Below are positions 28,139 through 53,378 of a stretch of 59,130 nt of DNA, one piece after another. The DNA is taken from NCBI GenBank assembly GCA_014762625.1, contig JABURQ010000133.1:1-59130 (forward strand), written 5' to 3'. This DNA comes from Planctomycetaceae bacterium (GTDB taxonomy: Bacteria; Planctomycetota; Planctomycetia; Planctomycetales; Planctomycetaceae). The notes beneath the pieces are model-generated. The model was not told the DNA's origin and made no database searches. It saw nothing but the letters and a program-made list of their open reading frames with translations. Every line of letters begins with the position of its first letter. The first letter of the stretch is position 1. The position numbers and the translations under genes were made by a program.

Positions 28139-29597
<1,459 letters not shown>

Positions 29598-29605
<8 letters not shown>

Positions 29606-30980
29606 GTTGCGCGAGCATCCTTTCCGAAATTCCGTTGGCCAACACTTCCGCGAGGCTATCGATTTCTTCCCGCGTTCGCTTTTCGGTGACGGCCACCAAA
29701 AGCAGGTTCTCGGTTTCGCTTCCGATTTCCTCTTCGAATTGAGAGAGCTTCGGTCCGAGCCCCAGACCCGATTCAGCCGCTCGATCGATGACGTCTTTCG
29801 CCGAGACAGGGCAGCGCAGAACGAACTCTTTGAAGAAGGGACGATCGAAGGCGAGTTCGTAACCGTCTACCGCCGTCAACTTCTCGGCCGCGTAGTGGGC
29901 TTTCTGGCAGCAGAGTTCGCCGACTTCCTTGAGCCCCTGAGGGCCGATCGACGTCATATAGATCGTCGCTCGCAGCGCGAGGAGCCCTTGGTTTGTGCAA
30001 ATGTTGCTGGTCGCTTTGTCTCGGCGAATATGCTGCTCTCGTGCCTGAAGATTCAGAACGAAGCAGGGAGCGCCGAGTCGGTCGTTTGTCGTTCCGATGA
30101 CGCGTCCCGGCATCTTTCGCATATATTCCTGGCGACAGGCGAGAATTCCCAGAAAGGGACCGCCGTACTGCATCGGAATTCCCAACGGCTGACCTTCGGC
30201 AGTCACGATATCAACGCCCATATCACCGGGGCGCTTGAGGACGCCGAGACTCAAGGGATCCACCGAACAGATCAATAACGCTTCCTTCTCGTGAGCCGCT
30301 TCAGCGAGTTCGTGGACCTGTTCCAGATTGCCGTAGAAATTGGGATTCTGGATGACCAACGCCGCGGTCTCCTCGTCGAGCGCCGCTTTGACGTCTTCCA
30401 GGTCGGCGGTTCCGTCAGCCGTTCCGATCTCGACCAGCTCCGCTCCCTGCAATTTCAGGTAGGTCTTCAGCACCTCCCGATATTCGGGATGAACGGATTT
30501 CAGGACGGCCACTTTCTTCGACCGTCGCGTGACGCGCATCGCCATGAGAGCGGCTTCGGTAATCGCGGTACCTCCCTCGTAGAGTGAGGCGTTCGAGACA
30601 TCCATGCCGGTCAGTTGGCAGATCAATGTCTGATACTCGAAGAAGACTTGCAGACTTCCTTGCGACGCTTCCGCCTGATAGGGGGTGTAGGCGGTGTAAT
30701 ATTCTCCGCGGGAACTGATTTCATCGACTACGGAGGGGATAAAATGGTCGTAAACCCCGCCTCCCAGGAAACAGGTGAGGCCGCTTCCCGCCTGATTCTG
30801 CTTCGCGCGACCGGCGATTTCCTGTTCGAGTTCGAGTTCGCACTTGGCCGGTTGAAGGTCCAGTTCTCCCTGGAATCGAAGTTCGGGAGGGATCGACGCG
30901 AACAGTTCCTCGATGGAATTGACGCCGATCTCCTGCAACATTTCCTGCTGTTGCTCGGGAGTGGTGAAGATATAACTCAC
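29598..30980 (-). CDS. gcvPA: Glycine dehydrogenase (decarboxylating) subunit 1
   Basis: The 460-aa product is the alpha subunit of the split glycine cleavage P-protein and pairs with GcvPB. The N-terminus (YIFTTPEQQQEMLQEIGVNS) and the segment FLGGGVYDHFIPSVVDEIS are characteristic, as are YTPYQAEASQGSLQ and GMDVSNASLYEG. It starts with GTG, preceded by AGGA at about 8-11 nt. It is separated from gcvH by 99 bp containing two short hairpins, so its expression may differ from that of gcvH. The downstream end overlaps gcvPB. Confidence 0.96.
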
Positions 30981-31061
30981 AATGAATTCCTAACGGTGAC
31001 GATTCATTCTCATCTGTTATTCGGTTTGCGCATCGGCGCACGCCGAAAATATGCGAAGACC

Positions 31062-39799: not shown

Positions 39800-39824
39800 G
39801 CTTGGATGTCTCACAAAAAAACCG

Positions 39825-39858
39825 ACGGGAGTCTCGTTCATCGAGTCTCCCGTTTTTT
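39825..39858 (+). terminator. Rho-independent terminator after the HAD hydrolase gene
   Basis: Stem ACGGGAG...CTCCCGT, extended by CTCG/CGAG with one internal mismatch and a 5-nt loop, is followed by TTTTTT. An A-run precedes the left arm, so it may also work on the opposite strand. Confidence 0.9.
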
Positions 39859-39925
39859 ATTGAGCTGCAGGCTCAGAGATTTATTCAGTTTGAATCGTTC
39901 TTCATTGCCAGAGTATGATGAGATC

Positions 39926-40891
39926 ATGAATACACGATTAATCGCCATTGCATTGCTGACTTTTCTCCCCTTTTCAAATTGTGCAGGTGAAGAAAACTCC
40001 ATCCTCGGCGATTGGGCCATCATCACACCTACCGGCGAAGCAGCCTGGTTGAGTGTTTCTATGGAGAATGGTAAGCCTCATGCTGAGCTCATGTGGGCCG
40101 TGGGGGGAGTGCGAGTAATCTCAGATTTTTTACTCGAAGGCAGTCGACTCGCGTTCGACCGAAAACGGAAAGGAAATCCGCAGACGTTCGAGTTCTCGGC
40201 GGAAGGGGAGCAACTTTCGGGTGTCCTCACCTCGTTCGACAAATTACGCCTTTCCAATCTGTCCCGCCAGAAATTCACCGGCAAACGGATGCCGCCTCTG
40301 CCACCGAAACCTGATCTCTCCAAGATCAAATTTGGACCGAAACAAGTTCTGTTCAATGGGGAAGATCTCACTGGTTGGAAGGTGACAGATAAGTCCAAAA
40401 AGAACGGCTGGTCGGTCAAAAATGGGGTCATGGTCAACGATACGCCGAAGACAGACTTTTCAGCGTACGGCGATCACGCCAATCTACGGACCGAAAAAGA
40501 GTTCGAAGACTTTCGGCTGCACATCGAATTTCAACCTCCGTCGGGCGGCAATAGTGGCGTCTATTTACGCGGGATGTACGAAGTGCAGGTTGTTGACCGG
40601 GATTCCAAAATGCAAGGTCTTCAGGGAGTCGGCTCCATCTTCGGTCGGATCAAAGCGATCGAAAATGCGGGTAAGCCGGGTGGAGAATGGAACGTCTATG
40701 ACATTACGCTCGTCGATCGACATGTGACAGTCGTTTTGAATGGCGAAACCGTGATCGACAACCAACCCGTCGCGGGACCGACAGGCGGTGCGATTCAAAG
40801 TGACGTCACCAAGCCGGGACCGATTTATCTGCAGGGCGATCATACGTCGGTCAAGTACCGCAACATCTGGATCGAACCGGTGGTGAAGTAA
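39926..40891 (+). CDS. Exported DUF1080 (3-keto-disaccharide hydrolase-like) protein
   Basis: The 321-aa product has a signal peptide (MNTRLIAIALLTFLPFSNC). The Cys lies near a lipobox-like FSNC, so lipidation is possible but weakly supported. A small N-terminal beta domain spans about 25-125. The C-terminal DUF1080 jelly-roll (about 135-321) begins with FNGEDLTGWKV and shows EFQPPSGGNSGVYLRGMYEV and VVDRDSK. DUF1080 proteins are numerous in planctomycetes and belong to the concanavalin-like glucanase fold; some act on 3-keto-glycosides. A longer upstream reading from 39806 runs through the terminator stem and is rejected. No paired oxidoreductase gene is adjacent. Confidence 0.9.
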   Translation: MNTRLIAIALLTFLPFSNCAGEENSILGDWAIITPTGEAAWLSVSMENGKPHAELMWAVGGVRVISDFLLEGSRLAFDRKRKGNPQTFEFSAEGEQLSGVLTSFDKLRLSNLSRQKFTGKRMPPLPPKPDLSKIKFGPKQVLFNGEDLTGWKVTDKSKKNGWSVKNGVMVNDTPKTDFSAYGDHANLRTEKEFEDFRLHIEFQPPSGGNSGVYLRGMYEVQVVDRDSKMQGLQGVGSIFGRIKAIENAGKPGGEWNVYDITLVDRHVTVVLNGETVIDNQPVAGPTGGAIQSDVTKPGPIYLQGDHTSVKYRNIWIEPVVK

Positions 40892-40970: not shown

Positions 40971-41999
40971 ATGACCATGCCCGACAACGACACCTCTGCT
41001 CCCGAGCCGACCGAAGATCGCGCGAAAGAAGCTGCCCCTTCCCCGAAACGACGTCGTGGTTGTTTACGGTGGCTGGTGTTGATCGGGTTGATTCTGATCG
41101 GCGGAGCGGCGTTTTACGTCAATTTCTGGTTGTATCACCCGATGGGAGAAGGGCCGGCGGGACCGCCGGTCGCGGCGGCGCCGTTCGAGGAAACCTGGAG
41201 CGAACGTCCCGTCGTGTTGCTCGGTTTTGGAGACAGCGTCATCGCCGGCTACGGCGCGACGAGCGGTAAAGGGGTTTACGACCGGCTCGTCAAAAACCCG
41301 GACGATGAATTCACCGACATGCAAGGCATTTCGCTCTCCGCAGTGTTACCGAACCTGTCCGAGAATAATTTGGCCCTCTCCGGTTCCACCTCACTCGAAC
41401 ATCTCGAAATTCTGATCCCGAAGATTCCCAAATACTCAGACGAAACGTTCGGGATCGTCGTCGCCACCATCGGCGGAAACGACATCATCCATATGTACGG
41501 CAGAACGCCGCCGCGAGAAGGGGCGATGTACGGAGCGACCTTGAAACAGGCGCAACCCTGGATTCGGAATTTAGAAGAACGTCTCAACACGATTTTGGAT
41601 GAAATCGCGGAGCGTTTCCCGGGCGGGTATCACGTCTTTCTGGCGAATATTTACGACCCGACTGACGGCATCGGCGATACGGTGAACGCCGGTCTGCCCG
41701 CGTGGCCAGAGGGATTGAAAGTCCTGAATGCTTATAACGACATCATCCAACAGACATGCACCCAGCGAGACGACGCCACGCTGGTCGACATGCACAGTGC
41801 CTTCCAGGGACATGGGATTCATTCGCGTCAATTCTGGCGATCGTTTTACGATGCCGACGACCCCGGTTACTGGTATTGGGATAACCTCGAAGATCCGAAC
41901 GACCGCGGGTACGACGCCTTACGGCGACTCTTTCTGAACCAGATGGCTGAGGTGTTGCCGGAACGGCTGCAGGAATTGAGGAGCGTCAAAAAAAATTAA
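40971..41999 (+). CDS. Membrane-anchored SGNH/GDSL-type hydrolase with altered catalytic His
   Basis: The 342-aa product has a cytoplasmic basic N-terminus, a signal anchor (about 30-52, WLVLIGLILIGGAAFYVNFW) and an external SGNH fold. Block I reads LLGFGDSVIAGYG with nucleophile Ser89, and block III ATIGGNDI has Asn170. The block V position, usually (D-x-x)-H-P-N-x-x-G-Y, here reads EDPNDRGYDAL, with Asp308 where the catalytic His is expected. It may therefore be a non-canonical or inactive esterase. A 3' copy of this gene lies in the pseudogene at 44228-44510 and keeps the same Asp. Two starts six bases apart are possible; the upstream is used. Confidence 0.85.
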   Translation: MTMPDNDTSAPEPTEDRAKEAAPSPKRRRGCLRWLVLIGLILIGGAAFYVNFWLYHPMGEGPAGPPVAAAPFEETWSERPVVLLGFGDSVIAGYGATSGKGVYDRLVKNPDDEFTDMQGISLSAVLPNLSENNLALSGSTSLEHLEILIPKIPKYSDETFGIVVATIGGNDIIHMYGRTPPREGAMYGATLKQAQPWIRNLEERLNTILDEIAERFPGGYHVFLANIYDPTDGIGDTVNAGLPAWPEGLKVLNAYNDIIQQTCTQRDDATLVDMHSAFQGHGIHSRQFWRSFYDADDPGYWYWDNLEDPNDRGYDALRRLFLNQMAEVLPERLQELRSVKKN

Positions 42000-42163
42000 C
42001 GCCTCTCGTTCTTACGATGATTTTTTACCAGGCCTTGAATCTTTGTGAGTAACGCATCAGACTCAAATGAGGCGACCATTCAGCCGGAGAATTGCTGCAA
42101 TCAGCGTCTCGATCTCTGTCTTGTGCTGTTCCCAGCACCATTTTCCATAACAATGACCAGTCC

Positions 42164-42658
42164 ATGGAGAACGCGTTCAACAATCAGTCTCCTCGAAAAC
42201 GATCGCGAAAGAAATATCTTCTCGTTGTCTTGATGCCGGTCCTGACGGGAGCCTTTGTCGGCACCGGAAGCTACACATTCATGTATGCGAACGGGGCATC
42301 CTATCTCAGTAATGACCCGAACGCCTGCGCGAACTGTCACGTGATGAACGATCATCTCTCCGCCTGGCAAAAATCATCTCATCACGCGGTGGCAACCTGT
42401 AACGACTGTCACGCTCCACATGGATCGCTGGCTGGTAAGTATTTTGTGAAAGCCGTGAATGGTTGGAATCACTCACTCGCTTTCACGACAGGTAACTTTC
42501 CTGACGAGATGAGAATCACCGATTTCAATCGATCCGTGACGGAGGGGGCCTGTCGGCACTGCCACTCTGAACTGACCGGTTCGATGCACGCCACCGTCAC
42601 CGCGACCGAAGAGATTTCCTGCCTGCATTGCCACGATCAGGTAGGCCATTTGGAATAA
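42164..42658 (+). CDS. nrfH: Cytochrome c nitrite reductase small subunit (NapC/NirT type)
   Basis: The 164-aa membrane tetrahaem quinol dehydrogenase feeds electrons from menaquinol to NrfA. An N-terminal transmembrane anchor (YLLVVLMPVLTGAFVGTGSY) lies at about 18-40. Four haem motifs follow in order: CANCH, CNDCH, CRHCH and CLHCH. The basic N-terminus faces the cytoplasm. It lies 5 bp upstream of nrfA on the same strand, a two-gene nrfHA operon typical of menaquinone-based ammonification. I see no clear FNR-like site in the 160 bp upstream. No maturation genes are nearby. Confidence 0.95.
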   Translation: MENAFNNQSPRKRSRKKYLLVVLMPVLTGAFVGTGSYTFMYANGASYLSNDPNACANCHVMNDHLSAWQKSSHHAVATCNDCHAPHGSLAGKYFVKAVNGWNHSLAFTTGNFPDEMRITDFNRSVTEGACRHCHSELTGSMHATVTATEEISCLHCHDQVGHLE

Positions 42659-42663
42659 TTGAT

Positions 42664-44052
42664 ATGAACGAGACCCCCCCTTCCGGAATCAACTACCGCA
42701 CCGTACTTATCACAACGATTGTGTCCGCGGCTGCGACCTTTGGCGTGATTGCGCTGCTGATCGATATTTTTGAGAAAAAGCAGGAAGCGAAAGAAACGAC
42801 CTTCCGCGTTGTCGAGCTGGACGACACGACGACGGATCCCGCCATCTGGGGGAAGAATTTCCCTCAACAGTACGACGATTATTCAAAAACGGTCGATATG
42901 GTTCGCACGCGCTACGGCGGTAGCGAAGCGATCCCTCGCGATCCCGGCAGCGAGGATCCGAGAGAGGTGGTCGCGCAAAGCAAACTCGACCATCTGCCTG
43001 AATTGAAACGCCTATGGGCGGGTTATTCGTTCGCGCAGGACTTTCGCGAAGATCGCGGACATGCCTATATGTTATCCGATCAGATTCACACCGAACGCCA
43101 AGAGGTCGCCTCGCAACCGGGAACCTGCCTGCAGTGTCATGCCTCGGTTTACGTTCCCATGATGGAATTGGGAGAGGGCGACTTAATGGCCGGATTTGAA
43201 GCGTTAAACCAGATGACGTATGACAAGGCCGTCGATCACGTGTCGCATCCCGTTAGCTGCATCGATTGTCACGATCCGGACTCGATGGAATTGCGCGTCA
43301 CGCGGCCGGCGTTCATGGAAGGAATCCAGACTCTCAAAGAGCAGGCCGGAGTCTCTGATTATGAGGTCAACCGTGACGCCACACATCAGGAACTGCGAAC
43401 GTACGTCTGTGCGCAATGTCACGTCGAATATTACTTCCAGGGAGACAAGAAGCGTCTCACTTTCCCCTGGTCCAAAGGACTGAAAGCGGACCAGATCCTC
43501 GCTTACTTCGACGAGATTGAATTCAAAGACTGGACTCATGCCGAGACGGAGGCGCCGATGTTGAAAGCACAGCACCCGGAATATGAACTCTGGTCACAAG
43601 GAACCCACGCCAAAGCGGGGGTGACGTGCTCCGACTGTCACATGCCTTACAAACGAATTGGAGCGAAAAAAGTCAGTGACCATCATGTGCGCAGTCCGCT
43701 GCTCAACATTAATCGTGCGTGTCAAACGTGTCATAAAGGGAGTGAAGAGGAATTGTTGTCCCGAGCTGAGTCCATCCAAACTCGCCATACGGAGCTCCGT
43801 GATCTCGCGCTCGATGCAATTATCGATCTGATTGATTCCATCAACGCCGCACAAGAAGCGGGAGTTGATGAGCAAAAACTGAAAGTCGCTCGCAATTATC
43901 AGCGAAAGGCGACTTTCCTATGCGATTTCGTAGAAGCCGAAAACTCCTCCGGCTTTCATGCCGATCAAGAAGCGGCACGCGTGCTGGGACTCTCTCTCAA
44001 TTATGCGCGACTGGGAGAAAAGTCCTTGATGCAGAAAAAAGATGGGAAGTGA
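42664..44052 (+). CDS. nrfA: Cytochrome c nitrite reductase, ammonia-forming (NrfA)
   Basis: The 462-aa catalytic subunit reduces nitrite to ammonium with six electrons. The N-terminal hydrophobic helix (about 10-32) is probably a signal anchor or uncleaved signal peptide. Five haem motifs are visible: CLQCH, CIDCH, CAQCH, CSDCH and CQTCH. The first, which supplies the active-site haem and is CxxCK in E. coli, is CxxCH here. The catalytic environment is otherwise conserved, with CHVEYYF (active-site Tyr), KAQHPEYE (active-site His) and an Arg in EDRGHAYM. It may run dissimilatory nitrite reduction or detoxification. Confidence 0.96.
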   Translation: MNETPPSGINYRTVLITTIVSAAATFGVIALLIDIFEKKQEAKETTFRVVELDDTTTDPAIWGKNFPQQYDDYSKTVDMVRTRYGGSEAIPRDPGSEDPREVVAQSKLDHLPELKRLWAGYSFAQDFREDRGHAYMLSDQIHTERQEVASQPGTCLQCHASVYVPMMELGEGDLMAGFEALNQMTYDKAVDHVSHPVSCIDCHDPDSMELRVTRPAFMEGIQTLKEQAGVSDYEVNRDATHQELRTYVCAQCHVEYYFQGDKKRLTFPWSKGLKADQILAYFDEIEFKDWTHAETEAPMLKAQHPEYELWSQGTHAKAGVTCSDCHMPYKRIGAKKVSDHHVRSPLLNINRACQTCHKGSEEELLSRAESIQTRHTELRDLALDAIIDLIDSINAAQEAGVDEQKLKVARNYQRKATFLCDFVEAENSSGFHADQEAARVLGLSLNYARLGEKSLMQKKDGK

Positions 44053-44110
44053 TCTCCGGCCCGCAGCCCAATTCTATGGGTGACGGCAAGCGGTTGTTTA
44101 AATGCAATTG

Positions 44111-44190
44111 TTTCGGAGCTCAGGAAACATCTGGCAGGGGATCGCGAAGCAGTTCGAATGGAGGCGGTTTAATTTTCTGGATGCCGGGAT
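44111..44190 (+). pseudogene. Decayed 3' fragment of a Ser/Thr kinase sensor gene
   Basis: Read from 44111, the frame gives F-R-S-S-G-N-I-W-Q-G-I-A-K-Q-F-E. The intact kinase at 44699-46888 reads F-E-T-E-G-E-V-W-W-G-A-A-K-Q-F-E from residue 690. After one frame change the match continues as G-L-I-F-W-M in both. Only this tail remains; an in-frame TAA precedes it. Decay is more advanced than in the adjacent hydrolase fragment. The intact copy's matching segment is near 46766-46841. Confidence 0.65.
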
Positions 44191-44227
44191 TGGAAAACCG
44201 GTTCGCCGGATAGAGCAGGGGAGGACT

Positions 44228-44510
44228 GCAAGTTCTGCATGCTTATAACGACATCATCGCACAGACGTGCGCCGAGCGAGACGACGCCACGCTGTTCGAT
44301 AGGCACGGAACCTTCCTGGGGCACGGGATTCATTCGCGTCAATTCTGACGATCGTTTTACGATGCCGGGGATCCCGGTTACTGGTATTGGAATAATCTCG
44401 AAGATCCCAGTAACCGCCGTTACGATGCTTCGCGGCGAATCTTTCTCAATCGGATAGCGAACGTACTGCCCGAGTTGCTGAAAGAACCGATACAGGATGA
44501 TAACAACTGA
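44228..44510 (+). pseudogene. Decayed 3' fragment of the SGNH hydrolase gene
   Basis: This copy parallels 41717-41999 at a constant offset of +2511 across its best stretch: 44325-44366 equals 41814-41855 with one mismatch in 42 bases. That mismatch changes a Trp codon (TGG) to TGA at 44346-44348. The remaining frame reads L-H-A-Y-N-D-I-I-A-Q-T-C-A-E-R-D-D-A-T-L and continues to a stop at 44508-44510. The N-terminal two-thirds, including the nucleophile block, is missing. It lies directly after the kinase-tail fragment and before the intact kinase. Confidence 0.92.
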
Positions 44511-44698
44511 TGCTGGCTGAATGATCCCGCAAAGTGACAAGTACAAACGCAGTCCTCCGACGGGCTCTGAGGAAAAATCGTCTTGAATTGACTGGAATCC
44601 TTTTATTTCTTTGTTTGTTCGTTTTGAGTGAGTGATAAAGTGTAGAAGACACTCGCTTTTGAACATCTCCCCCTATTCATCGCACATGCCAATCCATC

Positions 44699-46888
44699 AT
44701 GGTGACGCCCAGCCAACAACCTCATTCCGATGATCCCGCTGAACGATCGCTGGAGGAGAACTCCCAGGACAATCAAGCTCGGGATGAGGAACATCCTTGT
44801 CCAGTTCCCCCGGACCAAGCGGTTCACGCGCCGATCACTTTGAGAGGGGGACAGAGTCACGAGACAAATCAGATCGGTTCGGAATCCAAAACGCGAGGCG
44901 CGCAAACCACCATTAACTCCAGCAAGTTGAAGTCGGGTGACGCGTATTTCGGCGATTACCAGTTGCTGGAGGAAATTGCGCGGGGCGGTATGGGAGTTGT
45001 CTACAAAGCGCGACAGACGAAATTGAATCGAGTCGTTGCCGTCAAAATGATTCTCTCGGGGCGGCTCGCTTCTGAGACTGATGTTCGTCGTTTTCTGATC
45101 GAGGCAGAGTCAGCCGCGAATCTGGATCATCCGGGCATCGTTCCGGTTTACGAATACGGCGAACACGACGAGACCCATTATTTTTCGATGGCTTATGTCG
45201 ATGGCCCGAGTCTGGCTGACGTCTCCAAACAGAAGCCGATGGATCCCGCCAGAGCTGCCTCCATTCTTCGAAAACTCGCGGAGGCGATCGCTTTCGCTCA
45301 TCGACAGGGCGTCATCCATCGCGATTTGAAGCCTGCTAACATTCTGATCGCTGATGGCGATCAACCGCGCATCACCGATTTCGGACTGGCGAAATTGATC
45401 GACGAAGACGATCAATTAACGCTGTCCGGCACCATCATGGGGTCTGTTTTCTACATGGCCCCCGAACAAGCGGCGGGTCGAACCGCGGAGATCGGTCCGG
45501 GAGCCGACATCTACTCCCTCGGGGCAATATTTTACGAATTGCTCACGGGGCGTCCGGCGTTCCTGGCTTCCACGACGATGGGGGTCTTAAATCAGGTGAT
45601 CCATCAGGAGCCCGTTCCTCCTCGTCGGTCCAACGCACAAATCCCGCCGGATCTAGAGACTATTTGTTTGAAGTGTCTGGAGAAATCGATCTCCAAACGA
45701 TTTCCCACCGCCGACGATCTTGTGGCGGAACTACAACGCTTCGAGCGAGGAGAGCCGATTCTGTCCCGTCCGATCGGGCGTGCGGAATATGCCTGGCGCT
45801 GGTGTCGAAAAAATCCTACGACTACGTTCCTGACGGCTGGACTGGCACTCGTTCTGTTGGTGGGAGTCGTTACGGCCACGACTCTCTTTAACCGGGCCGA
45901 GGCAGAGCATCAACGGTTCCAGCGGCAGCAGAAAACTGTGGACGTCCTCTCCAATCTGGTTCTCACGAAAACCATGGACCAGACGGAAGATTGGCTGAGT
46001 CTGTTTTTCGAACCGGTCGAACGTGAGTTGATCGTGATGCGAGATCGCGTCCGCAACGGCGCGATCAGTGCGGAACAACCGACACTCGCCAACCGACAGC
46101 TCATTCCGCTCATCAAGCATTATCCGCAACTCTCGTCTCTGATGATCGCCGATGACCGGGGGCGGGAATACATGTTACTCAACATGGCGCAAACCAGCGC
46201 CGAAAAGCAATCGACAGAATGGCTTCTCAGACGTATGCAGATCGATCAGTGGGAACAACAGGCCGACATCTACGAATGGTCGGGAGAGTCCGCTCCGTTA
46301 CAGCCCACCAGTTCGAAAAATCTGGATTACGATCCGCGCGAGACCGTCTGGTTTCGCGGTGCCATCGAGAAATTGGAACAGGCGAACCATCAGACGTCAG
46401 AACGCGAGACGATTCATTGGACCGAACCGTATGTCTTTTTTGTGACCAAAGATTTGGGAATTACCGGTTCGATCTCTTTCCAGCGTCCTGAGACTCCCGA
46501 CGTGACCACCATCGTAGCTTTTGATGTACTGTTGATGGACATTACGCGGTTCACGATCAACGAACGTCCCACAACTCACGGAAAGATTCTGATCCTGACG
46601 GAGAACGGAAAACTGGTCGGTTTACCCGCCGATCCGAATATCGATTCAATCGACGAGTGGAAGTCACTGTTCCTGAAACCGATGGAGGATTTTCATCAAC
46701 CTGCCGTCAGAGCGGCTGCGGAAGAGTTTCAGTTTTCACGACAGGCGAAGGCTCAAATTCAAAGTTTCGAGACTGAAGGGGAGGTGTGGTGGGGAGCCGC
46801 GAAACAATTTGAGTTAGGGGAAGGTTTGATTTTCTGGATGCTCATATTGATCCCCGAAAGTGATCTTTACGAGCGGATCGAACATTAA
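44699..46888 (+). CDS. Transmembrane Ser/Thr protein kinase with extracytoplasmic sensor domain
   Basis: The 729-aa product has an 80-residue disordered N-terminus, then a PknB-type kinase domain (about 87-348). It shows the Gly-rich loop near 94-101 (ARGGMGVV), the catalytic Lys in VAVKMI (Lys116), HRDLKPAN (Asp209), DFG (Asp227) and APE (MAPEQ). A juxtamembrane WRWCRKNP segment precedes one transmembrane helix (about 377-397). The C-terminal region (about 400-729) is outside the membrane and looks like a Cache/PDC-type ligand-binding domain, with SLMIADDRGREYMLLN and WFRGAIEKLEQANHQT. The kinase probably phosphorylates FHA-bound or other substrates. A decayed tail copy sits upstream at 44111. 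Confidence 0.93.
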   Translation: MVTPSQQPHSDDPAERSLEENSQDNQARDEEHPCPVPPDQAVHAPITLRGGQSHETNQIGSESKTRGAQTTINSSKLKSGDAYFGDYQLLEEIARGGMGVVYKARQTKLNRVVAVKMILSGRLASETDVRRFLIEAESAANLDHPGIVPVYEYGEHDETHYFSMAYVDGPSLADVSKQKPMDPARAASILRKLAEAIAFAHRQGVIHRDLKPANILIADGDQPRITDFGLAKLIDEDDQLTLSGTIMGSVFYMAPEQAAGRTAEIGPGADIYSLGAIFYELLTGRPAFLASTTMGVLNQVIHQEPVPPRRSNAQIPPDLETICLKCLEKSISKRFPTADDLVAELQRFERGEPILSRPIGRAEYAWRWCRKNPTTTFLTAGLALVLLVGVVTATTLFNRAEAEHQRFQRQQKTVDVLSNLVLTKTMDQTEDWLSLFFEPVERELIVMRDRVRNGAISAEQPTLANRQLIPLIKHYPQLSSLMIADDRGREYMLLNMAQTSAEKQSTEWLLRRMQIDQWEQQADIYEWSGESAPLQPTSSKNLDYDPRETVWFRGAIEKLEQANHQTSERETIHWTEPYVFFVTKDLGITGSISFQRPETPDVTTIVAFDVLLMDITRFTINERPTTHGKILILTENGKLVGLPADPNIDSIDEWKSLFLKPMEDFHQPAVRAAAEEFQFSRQAKAQIQSFETEGEVWWGAAKQFELGEGLIFWMLILIPESDLYERIEH

Positions 46889-46996: not shown

Positions 46997-48448
46997 ATGC
47001 TTGATATCCTTCTCGATCAATCTGATTCTCCAGCCGCGAGGAAGCTGCCGCTTTCTCGTCGCCAATGGTTGAGCATCGGCGGATTGGCGGGCTTGGCGGG
47101 CTTAGGAAACCTGTTCCCCGGACAGAGCAGGGGGGAAGAAACTGAGGTTCACGATATCCCCGGTTTCGGTAAAGCCAAGTCCGTGATCGTTGTTTTCGCC
47201 AGCGGGGGACAATCGCAAATCGATACCTGGGACCCGAAACCGCTGGCTCCCAAAGAAGTCCGCGGACAGTTTTCCCCCATTTCAACGTCGGTTCCCGGCA
47301 CGATGATTTGCGAACATATGCCGCGGATTGCCAAAATCGCCGACAAGTTCACAATCGTCCGCAACATGTCGCACGCGGACCTCGATCACGGCTCTGCCTG
47401 TTATCTCTCCCTGACGGGTCAATATCACAAAAGACGCTCTTCCAATCCCGAACCATCCCCCACCGATCGGCCGTCTTACGCCGCGATCTACAAACATTTA
47501 CAGCCGAATGCCGGTTTCGCCGAACCCGCAATCCACATCAACGGCCCGCTCCTGGTGCCGATCAAGGTGAGCCCTGCGATGGATGGCGGACTACTCGGAC
47601 GCGACGCCCGACCGATGGTCCTCGGCAATGTTCTGGAAGCTCCGGTGGTGCTCCCCGGCTTGACGCAACGGGACGACTTGCCGCAAGTCCGTTTGAACGC
47701 CCGCCGCTCTCTGCTCGAACAACTCGACCGGGAAACGGGACGGATGGAATCTGATGCCTCAATGCTCGACCTGGAGACGCTGTACGGTCGCGCGTTTGAA
47801 ATGCTCAAGCGTCCCGAAACGCGGAATGCGTTCAAGTTGGAGGAGGAATCCGACGAGCTTCGTCGGCGCTACGGGATGAATCGTTCGGGGCAGGCGTGTC
47901 TGTTGGCCCGTCGACTCGTCGAAGCCGGAGTGCCGATGACGACCGTGTTCTTCAACCAGTCTGTGCGAGGGCAGGACACCGCGCCGGACGAAACCGACGC
48001 CTACGGCTGGGACACTCATAACGATATTTTCATGTCGCTCGAAGATCATCTCCTGCCGAGATTCGACCTGGCGTTTTCCGCATTATTGGAGGACCTTGAT
48101 GATCGGGGCTTGCTGGACGAAACCCTGGTGCTCTGCATGGGGGAATTCGGACGCGCTCCGCTGGTCGCTTTGGAGAAGAATTTTGTCGGTTCCTCGCCGG
48201 GGCGGAAGCATTGGTCGTTCGTCTATTCAATCGTCGCCGCCGGTGCAGGTGTCGGTCGCGGTCAGGTGCTCGGAAAATCGAACCGGATCGGCGCGTATCC
48301 GCTCGACGATAAACACGCTCCGTGGGATGTGACGGCGACGATGTTTTCAGCGCTGGGTATCAATCCCGCCGGTCATTTCAAAGATGCCACCGGACGTCCG
48401 TTCCCGATTTCACAAGGGCAGGTGATGACGGGATTGTATGAGAGTTGA
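46997..48448 (+). CDS. Tat-exported DUF1501 protein
   Basis: This 483-aa protein belongs to a large planctomycete family related to sulfatase/alkaline-phosphatase-like folds. A twin-arginine signal (SRRQWLSIGGLAGLAGL, about 20-38) predicts folded export. The domain starts at KSVIVVFASGGQSQIDTWDP and includes HADLDHGSACYLSLTGQYHK and the C-terminal ALGINPAGHFKDATGRPFPI. DUF1501 genes usually follow a DUF1549/DUF1553 gene; here the nearest such partner is 35 kb upstream, so it is unpaired locally. No function is established. The following gene begins 91 bp downstream with separate function. Confidence 0.93.
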   Translation: MLDILLDQSDSPAARKLPLSRRQWLSIGGLAGLAGLGNLFPGQSRGEETEVHDIPGFGKAKSVIVVFASGGQSQIDTWDPKPLAPKEVRGQFSPISTSVPGTMICEHMPRIAKIADKFTIVRNMSHADLDHGSACYLSLTGQYHKRRSSNPEPSPTDRPSYAAIYKHLQPNAGFAEPAIHINGPLLVPIKVSPAMDGGLLGRDARPMVLGNVLEAPVVLPGLTQRDDLPQVRLNARRSLLEQLDRETGRMESDASMLDLETLYGRAFEMLKRPETRNAFKLEEESDELRRRYGMNRSGQACLLARRLVEAGVPMTTVFFNQSVRGQDTAPDETDAYGWDTHNDIFMSLEDHLLPRFDLAFSALLEDLDDRGLLDETLVLCMGEFGRAPLVALEKNFVGSSPGRKHWSFVYSIVAAGAGVGRGQVLGKSNRIGAYPLDDKHAPWDVTATMFSALGINPAGHFKDATGRPFPISQGQVMTGLYES

Positions 48449-49557: not shown

Positions 49558-50541
49558 ATGGCTCACACTCCTCTCGTTTCGATTGTCGTTCCTAACTACA
49601 ATCACTGTTCCTTTCTTCCCGAGCGGATTAAAAGCATCCGCCATCAAACTCTCACGGATTTCGAGATCATTCTGCTGGATGATGCCTCGACGGACGGCAG
49701 CCAGGATTACTTAAACGAGAGCTCCCAGGAACTCGGTGCGACACTGGTGGTGAACGAAACAAACAGCGGCGGTCCCTTCGGGCAATGGAATCGAGGTGTC
49801 GAGCTGGCACGAGGGAAATATGTTTGGATCGCGGAATCGGATGATGCTGCCGAACCAGAATTCCTGGAGACGTTGGTCTCGGTCCTCGAAGCACATCCGG
49901 AGGTCGTGCTGGCTGAATCCAACTCCTTACGCATTGACGAATCCGGCAACGTACTCGGTCCACTTGAGCGATGGGAGGGGGACGACCTACAATCGCACTG
50001 GGAAAACGATTATTTCGCCGCCGGTCAGGATGAGATTCTGTCCCATCTTTACATCCAGAATACAATCCCCAGCGCCAGCGCAGTCGTCTTTCGGAGAGCG
50101 ACCTTTCTGGAAAGTGGAGGCGCCGACCCGTCATTCAGAGTGAGCGGCGACTGGTTGATGTGGGTCTCGCTCATCCAGAACGCAGAGCGTTTCTTCTCCG
50201 CCCAGCCGCTCTCCTACAGCCGAATTCATACCGCATCGCAACGGGCCCGATCGGCGTCTGACGGTCGCTTTGAAATCGAATCGTTACGCGTTCAGCAGAT
50301 GCTGCGAGAACGAATGCCGATCGACAAGCCCCTCCGTCAACGCGGGGCGTTCCGTTATGCCGCGGTGCGACTGCATTCCATTCGCTCGGGAGAAATGACC
50401 GCATCACTTTTCAAACAGTTCCGCTTTTTCAGAGGACTGTGGCAAGCTGACGGATGTGTCGCGATCCGTTTTCTGTTGCAGTTGATGATTTGTCTTCCGA
50501 TCGGACTCATCAAGCGGCTGCTTGGTCGTACCAATTATTGA
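49558..50541 (+). CDS. Glycosyltransferase family 2
   Basis: This 327-aa inverting-type (GT2/GT-A) enzyme transfers a sugar from a nucleotide sugar. The N-terminal nucleotide-binding strand reads SIVVPNYNHCSFLPERIKSI and is followed by the DDASTDGSQDYL motif. The metal-binding D-x-D region is at WIAESDDAAE. The C-terminus has a hydrophobic stretch (LLQLMICLPIGLIKRLLG) that may associate with membrane. It lies 31 bp downstream of the methyltransferase on the same strand and converges with two GT4 genes, leaving just 19 bp. Together they form a small envelope or exopolysaccharide glycan locus. Confidence 0.92.
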   Translation: MAHTPLVSIVVPNYNHCSFLPERIKSIRHQTLTDFEIILLDDASTDGSQDYLNESSQELGATLVVNETNSGGPFGQWNRGVELARGKYVWIAESDDAAEPEFLETLVSVLEAHPEVVLAESNSLRIDESGNVLGPLERWEGDDLQSHWENDYFAAGQDEILSHLYIQNTIPSASAVVFRRATFLESGGADPSFRVSGDWLMWVSLIQNAERFFSAQPLSYSRIHTASQRARSASDGRFEIESLRVQQMLRERMPIDKPLRQRGAFRYAAVRLHSIRSGEMTASLFKQFRFFRGLWQADGCVAIRFLLQLMICLPIGLIKRLLGRTNY

Positions 50542-50560
50542 CACACTGATGCCGCTATTT

Positions 50561-51847
50561 TTAGCGCTCGCGGTTGGTGAGATTTTGTATTTGCTTCCAT
50601 AAGGAGTCACAGTACTTGCTCAGACTATGATGCTCGGCGAGATAGGCGCGTACTTCCGGGACGGTCGCCAGCGACGCCGGTCGTTTCTGCCAGAATTCCT
50701 GAATGGTCTCCGCCATCGCTGCCGTCGATTCACCACAGGCCACTCCCGCCCGTGACGACTCCAGAAAGTCATCGAAATCGTGATTCGAGACGACCGGCAC
50801 TCCGACCGCTGCCGCTTGCAGTAACACATTCGGGAACCCTTCGTGTTTGAGGGAACCTGTGCTGACAAAAACGCCCGCTTTCGCGAAGATCTGGGGCATC
50901 TGATCGAACGGGACGTACTCCCGGTGCGTCACATTCGGCGGTAAGTCGCAAAGAACCTGCCGATAGACTTCGGGATCCTGACGATTCATGACCATCAGGA
51001 ACGGTATCTCGGGGCATTGGCGTGCGATCTCCAGCAGCCTCTCCGGGCGTTTATGAAATTGATCGGACCGTCCGATCCACAACACATATTCGGGCTTTTC
51101 TTTTGTCACGGGCCACTCGGAGATCTCGATTGGAGAAGGGAGCAGTATCCCTTCCCGTCCCGTTCTTTCCCGCAGCCGCTGTTGTTGCTGGCGGTTTTGA
51201 CACACGATGGCATCGACCCCTCGGAGCACTTCCAGCATCAATTGGCGATCTTCGCCGTACTCGTTCTCCTCTCCTTCATTGCCGGGAATATCGGCATTCG
51301 ACCGGAGTAACAGAAGGACCGGCTTTCCAAGCTCTTCGGCCGTCACCGGAACCGACGAGACATCAGCATTCACTCCTAAAACGAGGAACAGGTCGGCGGG
51401 TTGCTGGAGGAGGTAGTCATCGACTTCGCGCGGTCGAATTTCTGGTGTCCAAAACGGTTTCGTCAGCAAAAGTATTGGGAGTTGCCACAATAATTCCGGT
51501 TCAAACTGTCGTACTTTGATCCAGGGGAACGCGGACGTTCTCGTCAGGCACCGGGATGCGCGACGACGCCAGCCCGGAAACCAGGAAGGCCGGCGAAAAA
51601 TGTTGACCCCTTTTACTTCCGATGTCGGCAGGCGTTTCGGGCTCCTGAGATACAAAGTCACGTGACAATCGTCGATCCGCTGCAACCCGAAAGCTATCTG
51701 CCAGGAGCGCGTTTCTTCTCCGCCGACAGACTTTCCCCCCTTCGGAAACACGGCGGTGTAAGCATTGTAAGACACCACACAGACCGACAACGACCGCTCA
51801 ATTTTTCGGTCAGTACCAGCGGAGGAAGTCTCCCGAGACTTCGACAT
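50561..51847 (-). CDS. Glycosyltransferase family 4 (paralogue A)
   Basis: This 428-aa retaining GT-B glycosyltransferase has an N-terminal acceptor domain beginning with a SLSVCVVSYNAYTAVF segment and a GGEETRSWQIA loop. The C-terminal nucleotide-sugar domain starts near EYVLWIGRSDQFHKRPERLL. The donor-site segment reads EGFPNVLLQAAAVGVPVV, in which Gln occupies the second Glu position of the E-x7-E motif. The ATG at 51847 is supported by AAGGA 8 nt upstream; a longer GTG reading would overlap the neighbouring gene. It is adjacent to and similar to the next gene, so the two look like a tandem duplication. Confidence 0.9.
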   Translation of the reverse strand: MSKSRETSSAGTDRKIERSLSVCVVSYNAYTAVFPKGGKSVGGEETRSWQIAFGLQRIDDCHVTLYLRSPKRLPTSEVKGVNIFRRPSWFPGWRRRASRCLTRTSAFPWIKVRQFEPELLWQLPILLLTKPFWTPEIRPREVDDYLLQQPADLFLVLGVNADVSSVPVTAEELGKPVLLLLRSNADIPGNEGEENEYGEDRQLMLEVLRGVDAIVCQNRQQQQRLRERTGREGILLPSPIEISEWPVTKEKPEYVLWIGRSDQFHKRPERLLEIARQCPEIPFLMVMNRQDPEVYRQVLCDLPPNVTHREYVPFDQMPQIFAKAGVFVSTGSLKHEGFPNVLLQAAAVGVPVVSNHDFDDFLESSRAGVACGESTAAMAETIQEFWQKRPASLATVPEVRAYLAEHHSLSKYCDSLWKQIQNLTNRER

Positions 51848-51876
51848 GGGATGGTCCTTTGTGGAATGGTGACTGT

Positions 51877-53187
51877 TTAATTCCCGACACACTGTCGCAG
51901 GATTTGGATTAACTTGTCGACTCTCGAATCGAGCGAATGATGTTCTTCCACGTAGGCACGGGCCTGCGGAATATTGACGTCGTCTGGAGTCTCGGGCAGT
52001 TGACGAACGAACTCGCCCAGTTGCTCCAGCGATCCTTCCGCCGTCGTTCCTGAGTGAGACGCGTGCAGGAATTCTTCGCCGACACTCAGGGAGGCGATCG
52101 GAACGCCCGAAGCGGCGGCCTGGAGAAACGTATTCGGAAATCCCTCGGAGGAGGAGGTGTTTACAAGCAGGGACGCGTTTCGATACAGAGCCGGCATTTG
52201 TGCGAAGGGAATCTTGTCGACGATGCGCAGATTCGAGGGGGCCTCGGCTCGCACCTGACGTTCCAGTTCCTCGTCACTCGAATTCATGATCATCAGGAAA
52301 GGAGTTTCCGGGCACATGCATGCCAACTCCGGCATCAACTGCGGTTGCTTTTGATTTCGCTCGGCTCGTCCCACCCATAACACATAATCAGTGAGTGAAC
52401 CGATTTCAGCAGGCACCGGGGAAGTCTCGAAGCGTTCGTCCCACTCTTTCAGATCGATCGGGTTCTCAAGGATTTCTCCCGAACGTCCGAAATTCCGCTC
52501 CAGCAATTCCAATTGCTTCGAGGTCTGCACCACGACCCGGTCCGCGTTGGTGACGGCAAAATGGCACGTTTTGGCGGGAGTGTGATAAAGATTCAGATCC
52601 TCCGAGTCTGCGGTATAACGTTCATCGAGGTCGATGTCGCTGGCGATAAACAACACCGATTTTTTGCCGCTCGCTTTCGCCGACGCAATGACGGAAGCAC
52701 TGACGGCGTTCACTCCAAAGCAGGCCAGAAGATCGGTATCAACCGTTGTGTAAATATCGAGCGGACGGAGATCGCGCGAATGTGTCCGAGGACGGGTCAA
52801 CTGGTTGACGGCGAGCAGCGGAAGCTGCCAGAGCATGCGGCACGAAAAGTGACGAATCGAAAGAAACGGAAAGTGAGATGTTCGTCGGACGTTGCGGGAG
52901 AGGTCGGTTCTGAGTTGGTAATGCCGGTCGATGACCGGCAGCAGCGTTACGCCTTCATATTCTGTTTGAGAAACGGCTTCGTGATGCCGGATGATGAACG
53001 AGACGTCAAAGGCGTCACTTTGGGCGAGTGACCGGGCCAGCATCCAGGATCGCGTCTCGATTCCGCCGATCCCACCCTCCACACGGGAATCGATGGCCGG
53101 ATAAGCGTCCAACGCCACGAAACAGACCTGAATCGGTGGCTCAGAGCTGTCTGTGGCAGTCGAATGATGGGGTTTGGTCTCAGACAT
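51877..53187 (-). CDS. Glycosyltransferase family 4 (paralogue B)
   Basis: This 436-aa GT-B enzyme is closely related in layout to the preceding gene product. It shares the GGIETRSWMLARSLAQ loop, a VLWVGRAERNQKQPQLM donor-domain start and EGFPNTFLQAAASGVPIA, again with Gln in the second E-x7-E position. It has no N-terminal signal. ATG at 53187 is preferred over an in-frame TTG six codons upstream. It lies 29 bp upstream of paralogue A, so both should be co-transcribed and perhaps add successive sugars. Acceptor and donor are unknown. Confidence 0.9.
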   Translation of the reverse strand: MSETKPHHSTATDSSEPPIQVCFVALDAYPAIDSRVEGGIGGIETRSWMLARSLAQSDAFDVSFIIRHHEAVSQTEYEGVTLLPVIDRHYQLRTDLSRNVRRTSHFPFLSIRHFSCRMLWQLPLLAVNQLTRPRTHSRDLRPLDIYTTVDTDLLACFGVNAVSASVIASAKASGKKSVLFIASDIDLDERYTADSEDLNLYHTPAKTCHFAVTNADRVVVQTSKQLELLERNFGRSGEILENPIDLKEWDERFETSPVPAEIGSLTDYVLWVGRAERNQKQPQLMPELACMCPETPFLMIMNSSDEELERQVRAEAPSNLRIVDKIPFAQMPALYRNASLLVNTSSSEGFPNTFLQAAASGVPIASLSVGEEFLHASHSGTTAEGSLEQLGEFVRQLPETPDDVNIPQARAYVEEHHSLDSRVDKLIQILRQCVGN

Positions 53188-53378
53188 TGGGGAGCTCTGT
53201 GGCAAAATAATCGCTCATCGTAGCGAATGAGGAAATACGTCGCGAGATGCAAACCGGACCTCTACGCCGTTCGCTTCAACTTTCCCACCGGGGTCTTTAT
53301 ACTTTCAACCTGAAAACAACCGGGGAATTGTCCTCCCAGCACATTATTTTCCACACTTCAGACCAACCGGAAGCTGCA

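What the first reader, a model, noticed from the sequence alone, without database searches (positions are those of the whole stretch)
44053..44698. Scar of a tandem duplication: kinase tail and SGNH-hydrolase tail in a decayed interval
The interval between nrfA and the intact kinase contains the 3' end of a kinase copy (44111-44190) followed by the 3' end of an SGNH copy (44228-44510). The intact genes lie in the opposite relative order around it: SGNH at 40971 and kinase at 44699. A tandem duplication of an [SGNH-kinase] unit would give SGNH1-kinase1-SGNH2-kinase2. The two fragments would be what is left of kinase1 and SGNH2. The nrfHA pair sits exactly where most of kinase1 and the SGNH1-kinase1 junction would have been. 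So nrfHA may have arrived by replacing that sequence.
Basis: partly seen in the sequence, partly recalled or inferred. Interest (0 to 1): 0.7.

Follow-up and report, generated by a model that had tools for sequence, protein, structure and literature searches.

The report
Decayed leftover of a tandem duplication
In an uncultured planctomycete bacterium, a short stretch of dead DNA holds pieces of three neighbouring genes in an order best explained by an old tandem duplication, one copy of which was later mostly lost, apparently where two nitrite-reductase genes now sit; this is ordinary genome remodelling, unusually readable here.

Summary
44223-44486 is a broken copy of the 3' part of the SGNH gene at 40971 (81% over 264 bp, E 5e-69). 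44083-44184 is a decayed kinase 3' end (score 62; best of 966 window controls 35). The scar thus reads kinase end, DUF1501 start, SGNH end, as one tandem duplication of about 2.9 kb, from inside SGNH through the kinase into DUF1501, would give. The join lies at about 44222, so the second SGNH copy was probably born truncated. Both congeners met have HAD-SGNH-DUF1501 side by side without kinase or nrfHA. The SGNH piece is sister to the local SGNH; its codon changes are relaxed and not distinguishable from neutral, while the intact gene is constrained. nrfHA lies where the first kinase copy would have been. Arrival by replacement fits, but no left edge, repeat or relative proves it. Ordinary genome evolution; low interest.

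The parts
40971..41999 (+). Intact SGNH/GDSL-like hydrolase gene, 342 aa (SGNH1)
   Evidence: Pfam PF13472 E 3.3e-14; match in 12 of 59 genomes, own included, one of them (G032) only a broken part; constrained codon changes
42164..42655 (+). nrfH-like tetrahaem cytochrome gene (four CXXCH)
   Evidence: PF03264 E 9.5e-11; motifs
42664..44052 (+). nrfA gene (cytochrome c552 nitrite reductase; five CXXCH); no match in either congener
   Evidence: PF02335 E 2.1e-131; 12 of 59 genomes match, own included, G001 and G002 not
44083..44184 (+). Fragment 1: decayed 3' end of a kinase copy (matches 46738-46841)
44182..44221 (+). Fragment 2: decayed DUF1501 codons 33-46 (matches 47094-47133); 252 bp lost between it and fragment 1
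44221..44223 (.). Inferred duplication join: DUF1501 codon ~46 to SGNH codon ~248, in frame; about 4 bp (GGGA) shared by the two parent sequences
   Evidence: read by eye from the sequences and the frame-2 translation printed
44223..44510 (+). Fragment 3: SGNH codons 248-335 plus a diverged end, one in-frame TGA
   Evidence: 81% DNA identity to 41712-41975, E 5e-69; relaxed codon changes; sister of SGNH1
44699..46888 (+). Intact serine/threonine kinase gene, 729 aa (kinase2 of the model)
   Evidence: PF00069 E 2.4e-50; no match of its C-terminal 362 aa in the two congeners
46997..48448 (+). Intact DUF1501 gene; the right end of the duplicated unit lies about 137 bp inside it
   Evidence: PF07394 E 2.5e-77; about 85% aa identity to the gene next to SGNH in both congeners

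Best explanation
The interval is the remnant of one tandem duplication. Order of events: (1) the ancestor had HAD-SGNH-DUF1501; (2) a kinase gene came in between SGNH and DUF1501; (3) about 2.9 kb, from codon ~248 of SGNH through the kinase to codon ~46 of DUF1501, was duplicated head to tail, giving SGNH1-kinase1-[DUF1501 start joined to SGNH tail]-kinase2-DUF1501; (4) copy 1 decayed: 252 bp across the end of kinase1 and the start of the DUF1501 piece went, stops and frameshifts accumulated, and nrfHA came to lie in place of the SGNH1-kinase1 spacer and about 93% of kinase1. Shown: the three fragments, their order, kinship and relaxed evolution, and SGNH-DUF1501 without duplication in the congeners. 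Inferred: the join, that steps 2 and 3 preceded nrfHA, and that nrfHA replaced kinase1 rather than entering after a deletion.
For: Three fragments in the order a tandem duplication predicts, the DUF1501 and SGNH pieces abutting. Scores above all shuffles and real-sequence controls used. SGNH piece 81% to SGNH1 but about 70% to either congener, and sister to SGNH1 in a tree of 38 rows (support 91/72). Polarised changes: 8 synonymous / 2 nonsynonymous on SGNH1, 6/16 on the fragment, the stop counted among the 16 (Fisher p 0.008; 18 of 50 differences ambiguous and left out). Codon model: fragment omega differs from background (p 2e-5; 6e-8 with equal branch lengths) and is not distinguishable from 1 (p 0.22; 0.06). 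Both congeners: HAD-SGNH-DUF1501 directly adjacent, with no kinase, nrfHA or 3-keto-disaccharide hydrolase between. One copy of nrfA in the genome and no trace of nrfHA after the SGNH fragment.
Against: The two short fragments are weak on their own at genome scale. The spacer after SGNH1 and the one after the SGNH fragment are not similar; replacement predicts this, but it also means the left edge of the replaced stretch is not seen. Fragment omega estimates of 0.37-0.53 leave room for an early constrained phase. No relative in an intermediate state was found; the congeners lack the kinase, so they do not show the order just before the duplication. Tree support for own plus fragment is moderate, and the codon model's inner branch is saturated.
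Confidence: 0.82

Rival explanations
1. One reading: a whole SGNH-kinase unit was duplicated, SGNH2 was complete and worked for a time, and later lost its first 247 codons by deletion.
For: Fragment omega point estimates of 0.37-0.53 are below 1, and with equal branch lengths omega 1 is only just kept (p 0.06). The 264-bp match has no gap although it has 50 substitutions.
Against: The DUF1501 piece lies directly against codon 248 of SGNH; one event explains this, whereas here a second deletion is needed. Neutrality of the fragment is not rejected.
Confidence: 0.1
2. The SGNH tail is the native gene, cut off by an incoming block carrying SGNH1, nrfHA, a kinase end and a DUF1501 start from a sister lineage (xenologous insertion instead of self-duplication).
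For: Synonymous distance between the SGNH copies is about 0.58, like that between the two congeners (0.52), so the donor could be another species.
Against: SGNH1 and the fragment are sisters and far closer to each other (81%) than to the congeners (fragment about 70% to both; SGNH1 70% to G001 and 76% to G002). The block would have needed the same SGNH-kinase-DUF1501 order as the host, seen in none of the 80 loci.
Confidence: 0.06
3. nrfHA entered before the duplication and was lost from the second copy, while kinase1 was lost from the first copy by deletion.
For: It would need no replacement.
Against: No nrfHA trace between 44511 and 44698, and no likeness between the spacers after the two SGNH ends; it needs an extra loss.
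Confidence: 0.08

Closest known systems
Spontaneous tandem duplications in bacteria (PMC3411829, abstract read)
   Same: Head-to-tail duplication with a unique join sequence
   Different: The abstract's confirmed joins had more than 10 bp of shared sequence; here only about 4 bp are shared, and the join is old and decayed
Tandem duplication that activates horizontally acquired genes (PMC11111574, abstract read)
   Same: A gene that looks acquired (the kinase) lies inside a tandem duplication
   Different: No evidence of activation or selection here; the duplication has since been largely erased
Gene remnants and pseudogenes in intergenic DNA of bacteria (general knowledge, recalled)
   Same: Truncated copies with stops, frameshifts and relaxed codon changes
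   Different: Pieces of three different genes survive in an order that lets the event be reconstructed

Membership tests
Tandem duplication remnant | Pieces of two genes joined in the reverse of their normal order | tested here: met
   DUF1501 piece then SGNH piece at 44182-44486, against SGNH ... DUF1501 in the intact order
Tandem duplication remnant | Pieces are closest to the neighbouring intact copies | tested here: met
   SGNH. DUF1501 piece: score 53 with the own gene, 16 and 14 with the congeners' genes. Kinase piece: 62 with own, 24 with the G107 kinase
Tandem duplication remnant | A relative shows the unduplicated order | tested here: inconclusive
   Both congeners have SGNH-DUF1501 without duplication, but also without the kinase
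Pseudogene | Disrupted frame and relaxed selection | tested here: met
   In-frame TGA and TAG, frameshifts in the kinase piece; omega tests
Replacement of kinase1 by nrfHA | Both edges of the replaced stretch recognisable | tested here: not met
   Right edge: 30 bp between the nrfA stop and the first recognisable kinase base. Left edge not recognisable; no direct repeat of 8-14 bp between 41961-42170 and 44041-44200

The most novel reading that the evidence does not exclude
The duplication was selected: it put the newly acquired kinase behind the leader of DUF1501 through an in-frame DUF1501-start/SGNH-tail fusion (new expression of an acquired gene), and the spare first copy then served as a landing place that was swapped almost length for length (2083 for about 2.2 kb) for nrfHA.
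Probability: 0.06. Interest if true: 0.4.

Novelty: new member of a known kind. Interest (0 to 1): 0.2.

Why it matters
It is a small but clearly readable case in which an old bacterial tandem duplication can still be reconstructed after one copy has been almost erased. It suggests that a duplicated spare copy can be the place where foreign genes such as nrfHA settle without harm. It changes no known rule.

Tried and rejected
Spacer comparisons: the stretch after SGNH1, the one after the SGNH fragment and the one before DUF1501 show no likeness to each other above shuffles. Against the two congeners' SGNH-DUF1501 spacers, five of six comparisons lay below the 95% point of the shuffles; the sixth (after SGNH1 against G002, score 23) lay just above it (22) and below the maximum (31). 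Of two further comparisons around the left neighbour genes with G001's HAD-SGNH spacer, one (score 25; 95% point 23, maximum 32) was slightly above the 95% point; I take both as chance. The spacer after SGNH1 has no convincing match in the five genomes G000, G001, G002, G107 and G023 (best other E 0.049). No nrfHA remnant after the SGNH fragment. No direct repeat of 8-14 bp between the nrfHA flanks examined; two 8-bp inverted matches, taken as chance. Mismatches do not cluster in a way that would point to gene conversion (longest run p 0.29). A kinase homologue at 58% over the C-terminal region in G107 has no SGNH, nrfHA or DUF1501 match in the 19 kb around it, so it does not help to order events. 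The two better BLAST matches elsewhere in the genome (C148, C100) show no DUF1501 or kinase match; their ORFs look by eye like a xylose isomerase and an ABC permease (names recalled). Literature searches gave general background; of two papers the outline with abstract was read.

In one search the printed G005 translation, and the printed 'kin end' translation, were out of frame and were not used. L009 was left out of alignment A1 because of a stop in its frame.

Full report
What is there. The window lies in a genome of 6.23 Mb in 208 contigs; that it is a planctomycete is inferred from the names of the related records. Around the finding the gene order is HAD hydrolase, 3-keto-disaccharide hydrolase, SGNH hydrolase, nrfH, nrfA, the decayed interval, kinase, DUF1501, methyltransferase. 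The SGNH tail in the interval is beyond doubt: 264 ungapped bp at 81.1%, found again by a protein search of the whole genome as a second SGNH match with one TGA. The kinase tail is short and decayed, but scores 62 against a maximum of 44 in 200 shuffles and of 35 in 966 real-sequence controls.

A third fragment. It scores 54 against a maximum of 32 in 1000 shuffles, and 53 against a maximum of 35 in 1950 window controls. It does not match the congeners' DUF1501 starts (scores 16 and 14). In reading order the scar is thus kinase end, DUF1501 start, SGNH end. This is the order expected if the right end of a duplicated unit (inside DUF1501) is joined to its left end (inside SGNH). The 252 bp between the kinase and DUF1501 pieces are lost. 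At the join both parent sequences share about four bases, GGGA, and the join is in frame (read by eye). In-frame has a one in three chance, so nothing is built on it.

A caution. Against the whole genome the two short pieces are not significant by BLAST alone: the kinase piece has E 0.14, and two unrelated places have E 0.02 and 0.04. These two score 46 and 38 by the local aligner, less than DUF1501 (54) and kinase (62), and show no DUF1501 or kinase homology. One search did not list the DUF1501 place. The claim rests on score plus position plus order.

Relatives. Only two other genomes of the genus were met, G001 and G002. Their contig lengths equal those of JAURQH010000048.1 and JAQWSQ010000060.1, so I take them to be the same records. 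In both, HAD, SGNH and DUF1501 follow one another directly, at about 85%, 74-75% and about 85% amino-acid identity, within a longer collinear stretch. Neither has a match to the kinase's C-terminal 362 residues or to nrfA. Eighty SGNH loci were fetched from named genomes (the best 80 of 126 confirmed). Among them only the two congeners have the 85% DUF1501 beside SGNH. Four others (L066, L070, L093, L121) have a DUF1501 at 31-35% somewhere in the locus. None has this kinase; three (L068, L074, L127) have only a match to the kinase domain at 35-42%. Many of the 80 are short contigs, so absence of a neighbour is often not informative. nrfA matches occur in 12 of 59 genomes, own included, one of them very weak (E 2e-4); the best other is 66% in another genus of the family. 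Arrival of both nrfHA and the kinase in this lineage is therefore likely; loss in the congeners cannot be excluded.

Age and decay. SGNH1 and the fragment are sisters (support 91/72; branch 0.026 against 0.38; 38 rows, made of these two and 36 of the 80 loci). Their synonymous distance is 0.58, similar to that between the two congeners, 0.52, while synonymous distances to the congeners are saturated. The duplication is thus younger than the split from the congeners. Of 50 differences, 32 can be polarised: 8 synonymous and 2 nonsynonymous on SGNH1, 6 and 16 on the fragment, the stop included (Fisher p 0.008). The 18 ambiguous ones are probably mostly synonymous, which would lower the fragment's ratio. 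The codon model gives omega 0.37 (free) or 0.53 (equal branch lengths) for the fragment against 0.04 for the background. Equality with the background is rejected, equality with 1 is not (p 0.22 and 0.06). This suits a piece that was dead from birth or soon after, without proving it.

nrfHA. There are 30 bp between the nrfA stop and the first recognisable kinase base. From the SGNH1 stop to there is 2083 bp; the spacer and kinase sequence expected there and missing is about 2225 bp (counting the spacer from 44513). The spacer after SGNH1 does not resemble the one after the SGNH fragment, as expected if the former came with nrfHA. No direct repeats were found in the flanks. Replacement, or insertion into a deletion, cannot be told apart.

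Verdict. The find is ordinary genome evolution with an unusually legible record.

Noticed in passing
39806-40888: A 3-keto-disaccharide hydrolase gene sits between HAD and SGNH here, but not at this place in either congener: another lineage-specific gain (or congener loss) at the same locus. The congeners' whole genomes were not searched for it.
   Followed up: partly
L014:1501-1773 (G032:C200): Another broken SGNH tail (query residues 234-326, 58%, one TAG) in a different genus of the family; it is the only SGNH match listed for that genome (sequence read).
   Followed up: partly
42664-44049: nrfA has five CXXCH and no CXXCK motif; that classical NrfA has CXXCK at the catalytic haem, and that CXXCH variants are known, is recalled.
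   Followed up: no
50534-53214 and 28241-30989, - strand: Two places where neighbouring minus-strand frames are alike: about 33% over some 440 aa, and about 27% over some 350 aa; perhaps older tandem pairs.
   Followed up: no
44161-44486: The last codons of the kinase piece, the DUF1501 piece and the SGNH piece read in one frame (broken by TAG and TGA), because both the join and the 252-bp loss kept phase; chance for both about one in nine.
   Followed up: partly
44169-44666, - strand: A 165-aa open frame runs antisense to the scar; an antisense frame (41571-41831) also exists over intact SGNH, so it is taken as a by-product.
   Followed up: no
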